From the NCBI GenBank assembly GCA_003695725.1, contig RFHX01000351.1, positions 1 through 5,497 of the forward strand: 5,497 nt of DNA, in the 5' to 3' direction. The DNA comes from J061 sp003695725 [NCBI: Candidatus Schekmanbacteria bacterium] (GTDB lineage Bacteria > Schekmanbacteria > GWA2-38-11). The translations under genes and the position numbers were made by a program. The notes beneath the pieces are model-generated. The model was not told where the DNA came from. It did no database searches and worked only from the letters and a program-made list of their open reading frames with translations. Of this stretch, positions 2,685 to 5,497 are shown piece after piece (the first letter of the stretch is position 1; every line of letters starts with the position of its first letter).

Positions 2685-3101
2685 ATGAAAGTTATGAAAA
2701 AAATAAAGATAAAAAAAGCAACTTATCCTGAAAATTGTTCGGGTTGTAAATTATGCCAGATTGTTTGCGCTTTTTCACATAAAGGTTTCTTTGCTCCATG
2801 GCTTTCCAGAATAAAGGTTGAGGAAGAAAATTTTAAAAGTACCAAACCAAATCTTTGTAGATTCTGTGATTTTCCACAATGTATAGAATCTTGCCCTCAG
2901 AAAGCCCTATATAGAAAAGAAAATATAATTGAGATTGATATTGAAAAATGTACGGGATGCCATGAATGTGTAAAAGGTTGTCCTTATAATGCAGTTTCTT
3001 TTGATGAAGAAGAAAATCTACCATTAATATGCGACCTTTGTGAAGGAAATCCTGAATGTGTAAATATATGTCCTCGGGATATTCTTTCTTTTACTGAATA
3101 G
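2685..3101 (+). CDS. Four-cluster [4Fe-4S] ferredoxin, AOR electron-transfer subunit (AorA-like)
   Basis: This 138-residue iron-sulfur protein has exactly 16 cysteines in four groups: C18-x2-C-x2-C-x3-C28, C58-x2-C-x4-C-x3-CP70, C89-x2-C-x2-C-x3-CP99 and C116-x2-C-x5-C-x3-CP129. This is the four-cubane arrangement of HybA/DmsB-like electron-transfer subunits and of AorA-type partners of tungsten aldehyde oxidoreductases. It should carry four [4Fe-4S] clusters and act as a short electron wire in the cytoplasm. There is no signal peptide; the N-terminus is lysine-rich (KKIKIKK). The oxidoreductase gene begins 29 bp downstream in the same direction, so the two almost certainly form one operon and one complex. 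The start is uncertain between ATG 2685 and ATG 2694: the only Shine-Dalgarno-like bases (TAGG, 2669-2672) are 12 nt before the first and 21 nt before the second, which favours 2685. A two-codon frame (ATG ATA TGA, 2680-2688) overlaps this start. Confidence 0.9.
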   Translation: MKVMKKIKIKKATYPENCSGCKLCQIVCAFSHKGFFAPWLSRIKVEEENFKSTKPNLCRFCDFPQCIESCPQKALYRKENIIEIDIEKCTGCHECVKGCPYNAVSFDEEENLPLICDLCEGNPECVNICPRDILSFTE

Positions 3102-3130: not shown

Positions 3131-5017
3131 ATGTATGGGTGGACAGGTAAGCTTTTAAGGGTAAATCTTACAGAGAATAAATTTCATATTGAAGAAATGG
3201 AAAATTCTATTCTCAAAAAATTTGTCGGTGGAAGGGGAGTAAATTCATATCTGCTTTATAAGGGTGTTAAAGAAAAAATCGATTCTTTCGATCCTCAAAA
3301 TCTTCTTATTTTTGGCACAGGCCCTCTTGCCGGCACAATGATGCCCGCTTCTTGTCGTTTTACAGTCACAGCACTTTCCAGCACAACTTCAGGCCATGGT
3401 GATGCAAATGCAGGAGGATTTTTTGCTTCTGAAATGAAATTTTGCGGCTTTGATCATATTGTCTTTGAAGGCAGGGCTGAAAAGCCTGTCTATCTCAAAA
3501 TAGATAGAGAAGGGATTTCTATAGAGGATGCGGAAGAATTATGGGGGCTTGATTGTTGGGATACGCAAAGATTGTTGAGGAAAAAATATCAAGACAAAGA
3601 TTATCAAATTGCCTGTATTGGCATAGCAGGAGAAAATTTAGCCCGTGTTGCAAGCATTATGCACGGGCTTAAGCGTGCAGCAGCCAAGGGAATGGGGGCT
3701 GTAATGGGTTCGAAAAACCTTAAAGCAGTAGTCCTCAAAGGATTTAAACCATTAAGAGTAGCAAACAAGGCAAATTTTAAAAGAAAAGCGCTTGATGTAA
3801 TAAAAAGTCATATCCGCGATGATATGACTCTTTATGGAACTCCCGGCGGTGTTATACCGGAGGTAACCAGTGGATATTCACCTGCAACCAAGAATTTACA
3901 AACAACTATCTTCGAAGGCATAAAAGATATTGATCCCCGTATTATGCATCAAAAATATATTACACATATAAAAGCCTGTTTCGGATGCAGTATAGGATGC
4001 GGACGCCTTTATGAAGTAAAAGATGGTGAATTTTCAGGACTTAGCGGGGAAGGTCCTGAGCTGGCTGCAATGTGGTCATGGGGGACGCAGCCGCAGGTTA
4101 CTTCTCTTCCTGCTTTATTAAAGGCTGACGAGTTGAGCAACCGCTTAGGAGTGGACTGTATAGAAACAGGAAACACAATAGCTTTTGCTATGGAGCTTTA
4201 CCAGAGGGGAATTCTTTCTAAGGAAGATACTGACGGTATTGAGCTCAAATGGGGAGATTACAAGGCAGTTCATAGTTTGATCGAAAAAATTGCACGGCGT
4301 GAAGGGATAGGGGAAATTCTTTCAGAAGGGGTTGAAAGAGCGGCTAAAAAAATTGGAGGAGAAGCTGAAAAATATGCTCATACAATAAAAGGGCAAAGCG
4401 TGCCTGCTGATATGAGAGTAAAACACGGTATTGTCCTCGGTTATGCAACATCAACGAGGGGTGCAGACCATTTGAGAGGATTATTGATAGATGATGTAAT
4501 GCCAATAGATTATTTAAAGAATAAGTATGGAGAAGAAGCATTAAAATCTAAGGGAATCAAAGGTAAGGGCGGGGCGCTAAAATGGATACAGGATATGACA
4601 ACAGTGCCTGATTGCCTCGGTACTTGCAAGATTTTTTACATATTAAGCGCTGGTTATCAGGTTTTTACTTTTGATGACTTTGCGCAGATGCTCGAGCTTT
4701 CTACTGGTGTGAAATTTTCTGCTGATGATGTTCAAATGGCTTCAGAAAGAATCTATAATGTAGAAAGGATGTTTAGCGTCAAGATGGCTGGACACAGAAG
4801 AAATGATGACAAAGTGCCTTCTCTCTTTTTTGAAAAACCGACAGATGGCGGTCCATCAAAAGGAGAAAAGTTAAGTTACAAAAATTTTCAGGCAATGCTT
4901 GACGATTATTATAGAGCACGTGGATGGGATAATGAGACAGGAATACCGTTGCCTGAAAAATTGAAAAATATTGGGCTTGAAGAAATTGCAGATGATGCCG
5001 CTAAGATTTTATCATAA
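3131..5017 (+). CDS. aor: Tungsten-type aldehyde:ferredoxin oxidoreductase, catalytic subunit
   Basis: This complete 628-residue member of the AOR family (about 600-630 residues is normal) converts aldehydes to carboxylic acids at a tungsten bound by two pterin cofactors and passes electrons to ferredoxin. The N-terminus MYGWTGKLLRVNLT and the FVGGRGVNSYLLY segment (31-43) are typical. The [4Fe-4S] ligands are C283-x2-C286-x3-C290 (ACFGCSIGC) and C499. The two pterin-binding motifs are NRLGVD (337-342, an N-x-x-G-V-D form of DxxGLD) and DCLGTC (494-499, DxxGxC). The EGPE element (307-310) and RGADHLR (443-449), with a candidate active-site histidine H447, are also present. The only in-frame start is ATG 3131, because a TGA precedes it; its ribosome site is weak (GGA 10 nt upstream). 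The gene follows the AorA-like polyferredoxin in one operon. The FAD/NAD-linked third subunit (AorC) of the Aromatoleum-type enzyme is not visible in the window. Substrate range is unknown, and tungsten rather than molybdenum is assumed from the family. The last 23 codons lie in an 81-bp inverted repeat. Confidence 0.97.
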   Translation: MYGWTGKLLRVNLTENKFHIEEMENSILKKFVGGRGVNSYLLYKGVKEKIDSFDPQNLLIFGTGPLAGTMMPASCRFTVTALSSTTSGHGDANAGGFFASEMKFCGFDHIVFEGRAEKPVYLKIDREGISIEDAEELWGLDCWDTQRLLRKKYQDKDYQIACIGIAGENLARVASIMHGLKRAAAKGMGAVMGSKNLKAVVLKGFKPLRVANKANFKRKALDVIKSHIRDDMTLYGTPGGVIPEVTSGYSPATKNLQTTIFEGIKDIDPRIMHQKYITHIKACFGCSIGCGRLYEVKDGEFSGLSGEGPELAAMWSWGTQPQVTSLPALLKADELSNRLGVDCIETGNTIAFAMELYQRGILSKEDTDGIELKWGDYKAVHSLIEKIARREGIGEILSEGVERAAKKIGGEAEKYAHTIKGQSVPADMRVKHGIVLGYATSTRGADHLRGLLIDDVMPIDYLKNKYGEEALKSKGIKGKGGALKWIQDMTTVPDCLGTCKIFYILSAGYQVFTFDDFAQMLELSTGVKFSADDVQMASERIYNVERMFSVKMAGHRRNDDKVPSLFFEKPTDGGPSKGEKLSYKNFQAMLDDYYRARGWDNETGIPLPEKLKNIGLEEIADDAAKILS

Positions 5018-5026
5018 ATTTTGAAT
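4946..5026 (+). repeat. Left arm of an 81-bp perfect inverted repeat
   Basis: Bases 4946-5026 match the reverse complement of 5417-5497 at all 81 positions. This arm contains AOR codons 606-628, the TAA stop and 9 bp of downstream sequence. The match stops at 5027 (G here, A in the other copy). The repeat may extend further leftward, since the other arm is cut by the window end. The arms are separated by 390 bp containing the cytochrome gene. Confidence 0.97.
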
Positions 5027-5042
5027 GTAAAAAGAAGACTTG

Positions 5043-5297
5043 TTATCTGAAAATTTTGAATTCTCTATAGACCTTGTCAAAGTGGCATCTTTTACAATTT
5101 TCTGGTTCATGCGGATGCTTTTTGCCCATCGGATTGTCAGTTTCAGGACCATGACATTCGAGACACGCATCATCTGAAGTATATTCTTTATGAATTTCGT
5201 TTGCGGGAGGTGAAGGTATCTCCTGTGAAGGAAGAAAATTCAGCGCAATTACTACAAAAATCGCAAAGGCAATAAAAAGATAAGTGCTTTTTTTCAT
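5043..5297 (-). CDS. Small membrane-anchored diheme cytochrome c
   Basis: This is an 84-residue protein with two c-type heme sites, CLECH (45-49) and CKRCH (68-72). A hydrophobic N-terminal segment (YLFIAFAIFVVIALNFL, 6-22) after MKKST is a signal peptide or anchor. No clear signal-peptidase AXA site follows, so anchoring is the likelier outcome, with the heme domain in the periplasm. Extra histidines H36, H61 and H63 (KKHPHEPEN) could serve as distal heme ligands, so bis-His hemes are plausible. Such small 'doubled CXXCH' proteins shuttle electrons in anaerobic respiratory chains; the redox partner is unknown. The gene converges on the AOR gene with 25 bp between the stop codons. Its ribosome site is weak (GGA 11 nt before the ATG), and TAGAAT (5324-5319 on the minus strand) is a possible -10. 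The name of the family is not certain, but the c-type heme sites are. Confidence 0.85.
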   Translation of the reverse strand: MKKSTYLFIAFAIFVVIALNFLPSQEIPSPPANEIHKEYTSDDACLECHGPETDNPMGKKHPHEPENCKRCHFDKVYREFKIFR

Positions 5298-5337
5298 AAT
5301 TCTTACATTCCATTAATTATTCTAAATGGGCTTCTAT

Positions 5338-5372
5338 AAAAAAACACTTTCTTAGTCAAGTGCGAAAGTTTT
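5338..5372 (-). terminator. Intrinsic terminator-like hairpin with T-run
   Basis: On the minus strand ACTTTC (5369-5364), a 12-nt loop and GAAAGT (5351-5346) form a 6-bp stem. It extends by three A-T pairs if one G (5345) is bulged. A run of seven T residues (5344-5338) follows. This is the form of a Rho-independent terminator for a leftward transcript arriving from the right. It would separate such a transcript from the cytochrome gene starting at 5297. The other strand also has a T-rich stretch after the stem, so it may act in both directions. Confidence 0.5.
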
Positions 5373-5416
5373 ATTGTTTATCATATTCTTATGCGAATAG
5401 TGTATATTCTTCATTT

Positions 5417-5497
5417 ATTCAAAATTTATGATAAAATCTTAGCGGCATCATCTGCAATTTCTTCAAGCCCAATATTTTTCAATTTTTCAGGCAACGG
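5417..5497 (-). repeat. Right arm of the 81-bp perfect inverted repeat
   Basis: This arm is the reverse complement of 4946-5026 without a single mismatch, and it runs to the last base of the window. It may be the visible edge of a longer inverted duplication, or an artefact of the end of the sequence. Confidence 0.97.
5426..5497 (-). CDS. Last 23 codons of a second AOR copy (partial, possibly artefactual)
   Basis: Read leftward from the window edge, this frame encodes PLPEKLKNIGLEEIADDA and five more residues, then TAA. It is identical to the end of the complete AOR gene, both in bases and in protein (residues 606-628). If real, a second tungsten aldehyde oxidoreductase gene points towards the first, with the diheme cytochrome gene between them, and it is probably ended by the hairpin at 5338-5372. 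If the sequence end is a chimera, no such gene exists. Nothing in these 72 bases alone can decide. Confidence 0.4.
   Translation of the reverse strand, partial: PLPEKLKNIGLEEIADDAAKILS

What the first reader, a model, noticed from the sequence alone, without database searches (positions are those of the whole stretch)
4946..5497. 81-bp perfect inverted repeat places the AOR 3' end a second time at the window edge
Bases 5417-5497 are the exact reverse complement of 4946-5026 (81 of 81), covering AOR codons 606-628, the stop and 9 non-coding bases. Perfect identity that includes non-coding sequence implies either a very recent inverted duplication (two convergent AOR genes around a diheme cytochrome, able to invert or undergo gene conversion) or a chimera or assembly artefact, for example strand switching during amplification or a graph overlap at a contig end. 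The repeat running exactly into the end of the sequence makes an artefact a serious option. A second AOR gene should not be annotated without checking.
Basis: partly seen in the sequence, partly recalled or inferred. Interest (0 to 1): 0.6.

Follow-up and report, generated by a model that had tools for sequence, protein, structure and literature searches.

The report
Artefact tail at a contig end
The mirrored 81-base copy of an enzyme gene's end sits flush with the end of a draft-genome contig and is most likely a sequencing or assembly artefact rather than a second gene.

Summary
Bases 5417-5497 are the reverse complement of 4946-5026, 81 of 81; 200 shuffles give at most 17. The window is a whole contig (C351 of 374) of a draft genome, so the repeat ends at a contig end.

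The copy holds 23 codons, the stop and 9 bases. No second aldehyde:ferredoxin oxidoreductase (AOR) was found. Other AOR matches in the genome are at most 41% identical, and DNA searches, which scored only the best 40 candidates each, found no long match on another contig. The one same-family genome seen has the same gene order up to the cytochrome, then genes unrelated to AOR. Among 123 readable sampled contigs (239 ends) only this one has a self-inverted end; no other holds an exact internal inverted repeat over 29 bases. Flush overlaps seen between contig ends are 99 bases, so 81 is not an ordinary graph overlap.

Best reading: a fold-back chimeric tail, or a misjoin, kept at a contig end. 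A real recent inverted duplication is not excluded, because no reads could be examined. Do not annotate a second AOR.

The parts
4946..5026 (+). Arm 1: 3' end of the AOR gene (codons 606-628, stop TAA, 9 non-coding bases)
   Evidence: exact inverted match to 5417-5497; ORF 3131-5017
5417..5497 (-). Arm 2: exact reverse complement of arm 1, flush with the contig end; probable artefact tail
5416..5417 (.). Junction that needs read support
   Evidence: first mismatch between the arms lies at 5416 against 5027
3131..5017 (+). Aldehyde:ferredoxin oxidoreductase-like gene, 628 codons, complete
   Evidence: PF02730 and PF01314; best matches among solved structures 1aor, 9mqx, 9g7j, 8c0z
2685..3101 (+). 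Iron-sulfur (4Fe-4S) protein upstream of AOR, likely its small subunit
   Evidence: Fer4 domains; best matches among solved structures 9mqx_E, 6x6u_B, 6x1o_B, 8c0z_C
5043..5297 (-). Small protein with two CXXCH motifs (diheme cytochrome by motif, read by eye), convergent with AOR, between the two arms
   Evidence: ORF; no Pfam or NCBIfam match; 67% identical relative at the same place in G001 and 51% in G002

Best explanation
The last 81 bases of this contig are an artefact tail. Most likely a library molecule covering about 4946-5416 folded back or switched strand and copied its own start. It gave a chimeric molecule of about 552 bases whose end is the reverse complement of 4946-5026. Because the true genome beyond 5416 was poorly covered or ambiguous, the assembler kept this chimeric end and stopped where the molecule ended. 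Shown: the exact inverted copy, its position flush with a contig end, and the lack of a second near-identical AOR among the protein matches of the bin. Inferred: the fold-back step and the low coverage. A misjoin made by the assembler itself would look the same.
For: The tail is flush with the contig end. It is the only self-inverted end among 239 ends of 123 readable sampled contigs, and the only exact within-contig inverted repeat over 29 bases in about 1.09 Mb, so real inverted duplications of this kind are not a habit of this genome. The flush overlaps seen between contig ends are 99 bases (6 of 6), so the word size was about 99-100. From general knowledge of such assemblers, a true repeat of only 81 bases would not stop one, and a true repeat longer than the word should tend to break the contig at the main copy and leave a partner contig. 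The main copy is unbroken. No partner was seen: the protein search scored all its 12 candidates, the DNA searches 40 of 119, 54 and 64 candidates. The closest relative has the same gene order and no second AOR tail beyond the cytochrome. The span of both arms, 552 bases, is near the 500-base target insert of one study that names the Schekmanbacteria (passage of PMC5079060); that this contig comes from that study is not shown. Sonication libraries are reported to yield chimeric reads made of a strand plus its inverted complement (passages of PMC10908179, human DNA).
Against: No reads or coverage were available, so no chimeric read was seen. An assembler that demands repeated support should drop a single chimeric read (general knowledge). 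No microhomology is visible left of the junction (7 of 15 bases agree); it could lie inside the first bases of the tail, since the true sequence beyond 5416 is unknown. No second example of the same artefact was found in the sample, so a systematic artefact is not shown. One other contig end (C8) stops inside a 94-base exact copy of another contig's interior (C168), and that could be a genuine repeat, so contigs here may stop at real repeats without breaking the other copy.
Confidence: 0.75

Rival explanations
1. A real, recent inverted duplication of the AOR 3' end or of the whole gene lies beyond the contig end, so that two convergent copies flank the cytochrome gene. The contig stops because the true repeat is longer than the assembler's word.
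For: Perfect identity including non-coding bases fits a recent event. Contig C8 stops inside a near-identical copy of the interior of C168 (94 exact bases, going on past one mismatch), so real repeats may end contigs here without breaking the other copy. The rest of a second copy could hide in contigs under 3,000 bases, which read as N (15 of 138 fetched), or outside the bin.
Against: No near-identical AOR piece on another contig by protein (all 12 candidates scored); none by DNA among the scored candidates. The same-family genome has unrelated genes beyond the cytochrome. A repeat longer than the word would tend to break the contig inside the main AOR, which is unbroken. The other AOR-family matches are at most 41% identical, so they are not recent copies.
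Confidence: 0.17
2. Strain variation: a minor strain in the sample carries a rearrangement with the inverted copy, and its junction was assembled onto the major strain's contig.
For: The genome is a draft in 374 contigs with 1.19% estimated contamination, and some contig ends in it lie at repeats (at least 12 of 239 ends share 20 or more exact bases with the sampled contigs, six of them as flush overlaps).
Against: Nothing specific supports it; no variant contig for this region was seen among the scored candidates (40 of 119).
Confidence: 0.06
3. An invertible or mobile element with inverted terminal repeats that carries the cytochrome gene.
For: Two inverted arms flank a single gene.
Against: No site-specific recombinase or transposase domain in the six window proteins scanned. 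The arms are mostly coding sequence of the neighbouring enzyme. In G001 the cytochrome gene sits at the same place and no second AOR tail was found in the 14 kb read.
Confidence: 0.02

Closest known systems
Fold-back or strand-switch chimeric reads from library preparation (PMC10908179, passages seen, 12 of 31 places)
   Same: One part of the molecule is followed by the inverted complement of a nearby part of the original strand.
   Different: That study describes human libraries and artefacts tied to natural inverted repeats or palindromes; here no such repeat can be seen, and the artefact would have survived into a contig.
Local assembly errors and non-unique contig ends in metagenome assemblies (PMC7111523, passages seen, 12 of 16 places)
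   Same: Assemblers are said there to retain non-unique sequence at scaffold ends and to make local errors that lack read support.
   Different: The end overlap it describes is about the largest word size (99 bases seen here), not 81. The passages seen do not describe an inverted tail, and the words 'palindrom' and 'inverted' do not occur in its main text.
Aldehyde:ferredoxin oxidoreductase with its iron-sulfur subunit (solved: 1aor, 9mqx, 8c0z, 6x6u)
   Same: The main gene and its upstream iron-sulfur gene match the large and small subunits by sequence.
   Different: Only the main copy at 3131-5017 belongs here; the 81-base tail is not a gene.

Membership tests
Second AOR gene (arm 2) | AFOR_N and AFOR_C domains and a complete reading frame | tested here: not met
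   Arm 2 holds 23 codons only; the contig ends there. What lies beyond is unknown
Second AOR gene (arm 2) | Another near-identical AOR piece elsewhere in the genome that would continue it | tested here: inconclusive
   None by protein (12 of 12 candidates scored) and none by DNA (40 of 119, 54 and 64 candidates scored). But 15 of 138 fetched contigs, all under 3,000 bases, read as N and may be invisible to searches, and unbinned sequence was not searched
AOR (main gene, 3131-5017) | AFOR_N and AFOR_C domains | tested here: met
   PF02730 E 2.8e-72, PF01314 E 1.2e-110
AOR (main gene, 3131-5017) | Bound tungsten cofactor and aldehyde oxidation | not testable with these tools
   needs protein work
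Chimeric or misassembled contig end | Tail duplicates nearby sequence and ends flush with a contig end | tested here: met
Chimeric or misassembled contig end | Junction lacks independent read support | not testable with these tools
   no reads held
Ordinary word-length graph overlap | Exact flush overlap of about the largest word (99 here) with another contig end | tested here: not met
   81 bases, matching the contig's own interior; no partner contig among scored candidates
Invertible element | Site-specific recombinase nearby | tested here: inconclusive
   no such Pfam domain among six window proteins; genes beyond the contig end are unknown

The most novel reading that the evidence does not exclude
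A very recent real inverted duplication has put two convergent AOR copies around a small cytochrome gene, possibly allowing inversion or gene conversion in part of the population.
Probability: 0.15. Interest if true: 0.3.

Novelty: not a real feature. Interest (0 to 1): 0.07.

Why it matters
It mainly prevents a wrong annotation (a phantom second AOR or an 'inverted repeat element') from spreading from a draft genome. If the duplication were real, it would be a recent, possibly unstable copy-number change at an enzyme locus in a lineage with no cultured member known to me (recalled, not checked).

Tried and rejected
Graph overlap: rejected because the flush overlaps seen here are 99 bases and no partner contig was seen. 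Ends were compared only among the 123 readable sampled contigs, so overlaps with unsampled contigs are not counted.

Finding the true continuation by gene order: two genes beyond the cytochrome in G001 were searched in the own genome. The spore photoproduct lyase-like one gave nothing (which warns that an empty answer shows nothing without a positive control). The ParB-like one gave only a weak 27% match on C151. So the true neighbour of 5416 was not found.

Conservation of 5298-5497 (119 bases upstream of the cytochrome gene plus the 81-base tail) with the 485 bases upstream of the G001 gene: no better than shuffles (187 of 200 reach the score). A search of the own genome with 5298-5416 gave only itself and matches of 14-19 bases at E above 0.5. 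Promoter hits are at the shuffled level (2 found, mean 2.2) and no terminator-like site was found. No Rfam family and no tRNA.

Named genomes: one relative confirmed, a Candidatus Schekmanbacteria MAG (a single-protein query reaches close relatives only, and records of the own genome may be left out). Viral contigs: none.

Papers: Schekmanbacteria with aldehyde ferredoxin oxidoreductase, 0 papers. Searches on inverted repeats, assembly errors, chimeric reads and contig ends held 91, 98 and 133 papers, of which I saw 20, 15 and 12 in listings; none of the listed titles or abstract starts describes this exact pattern. A search on tandem inversion duplication was seen as a listing of 8 of 12 and not used.

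The contig sample is not random: 138 of 374 contigs, 18 picked by hand (the window itself, some with AOR or other matches, some by number) and 120 at steps in contig number. 15 read wholly as N and were dropped; one of them had given a spurious self-match. Seven were cut at 20,000 bases, so only one of their ends was counted.

Full report
Observation. 5417-5497 is the exact reverse complement of 4946-5026 (81 of 81), with a mismatch at the next position. The longest exact inverted repeat of the window is 81, against 13 without the tail and 11-17 in 200 shuffles. The arm covers AOR codons 606-628, the stop and 9 non-coding bases. BLAST extends the match to 93 columns at 96%, but the flanks are at chance level (324 of 500 shuffles reach the score).

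Where it lies. The window is the whole of contig C351, 5497 bases, of a 2.77 Mb draft genome in 374 contigs (completeness 97.84, contamination 1.19). The repeat is therefore flush with a true contig end. A search of the whole phylum covered 4 genomes, the own one included. One of them, G003, has a 12,313-base contig 146 with the AOR relative. A named record with the same number and length belongs to Candidatus Schekmanbacteria bacterium GWA2_38_11.

Genes. Left to right: an SH3-domain protein, RecA, an FAD-dependent oxidoreductase, a 4Fe-4S protein, AOR, and a small protein with two CXXCH motifs on the opposite strand. The AOR and the 4Fe-4S protein match the large and small subunits of solved aldehyde oxidoreductases by sequence. 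The same order is found in G001, the only same-family genome seen, where AOR is 74% identical and the cytochrome gene also converges on it. Beyond the cytochrome, G001 has a spore photoproduct lyase-like gene, a ParB-like gene and a glycosyltransferase. There is no second AOR tail in the 14 kb read. In G003 the AOR is 62% identical, no cytochrome relative was found in that 70%-complete genome, and the tail query gave only a chance-level match (E 0.33).

Is there a second AOR? The own genome shows 12 protein matches besides the main gene, all 12 candidates of the first look having been scored. One match is the tail itself; the others are at most 41% identical. DNA searches with the whole window, with the 81-base arm and with the rest of the AOR gene found the contig itself, its arms, and short weak matches on C71, C373, C195, C268, C162 and C312. 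They scored only 40 of 119, 54 and 64 candidates, so they are not exhaustive. The 22 bases at the junction side of the repeat occur only in the two arms, allowing one mismatch. So no other contig was seen to continue a second copy. Caveat: 15 of 138 fetched contigs, all under 3,000 bases, read as N and may be invisible to searches, and unbinned sequence was not searched.

How do contigs end in this assembly? Of 138 fetched contigs, 123 were readable (1.09 Mb, 239 ends). Compared only with each other, 12 ends carry an exact repeat of 20 bases or more. Six are three flush pairs of exactly 99 bases, three are direct repeats of 41-43 bases within the same contig, two are copies inside or near the end of another contig (94 and 40 bases), and one is the window's inverted end. 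The 99-base overlaps point to a word size of about 99-100. One study that names the Schekmanbacteria used IDBA-UD with words from 40 to 100 in steps of 20, 150-base pairs and a 500-base target insert (passages of PMC5079060). PMC7111523 states that IDBA-UD overlaps often equal the largest word (passage), which would be 100 rather than 99, so the assembler of this genome is not identified. With such words a true repeat of only 81 bases would be passed through, and a longer true repeat would be expected to break the main copy or leave a partner contig (general knowledge). Neither was seen. The C8/C168 end (94 exact bases) shows that this expectation may not be strict.

Mechanism. The simplest account is a chimeric library molecule of about 552 bases: 4946 to 5416, followed by the inverted copy of its own first 81 bases. 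Its outer end would be the contig's end. Chimeric reads made of a strand and its inverted complement are reported from sonicated libraries (passages of PMC10908179, human DNA). This step is inferred; an assembler misjoin is equally compatible with the sequence. I put 0.75 on artefact of either kind, 0.17 on a real inverted duplication, 0.06 on strain variation and 0.02 on an invertible element.

Verdict. Observation confirmed; the feature is probably not real biology. A second AOR should not be annotated, and 5417-5497 should be marked as unsupported.

Noticed in passing
L145 1-94 (G000:C8 start) and L161 271-364 (G000:C168): The start of contig C8 is an exact 94-base reverse-complement copy of the interior of contig C168, with similarity continuing past one mismatch; both contigs also carry an AOR-family gene.
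   Followed up: partly
G000: The genome holds many diverged AOR-family matches (on C71, C312, C168, C8, C268, C303, C6, C373, C130, C43); relatives do too (17 matches in G001, 14 in G002). Not examined.
   Followed up: no
window 5043-5297 and L172 1483-1734: The small two-CXXCH protein has a relative in G002 on a contig (C19) that carries none of that genome's AOR matches, so the protein is not tied to AOR.
   Followed up: partly
L030 96-132 and 820-856 (G000:C162): An internal 37-base inverted repeat, 95% identical, the next longest inverted repeat in the contig sample.
   Followed up: no
L053 start, L097 start, L162 end: Three contig ends stop at exact direct repeats of 41-43 bases within the same contig.
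   Followed up: partly
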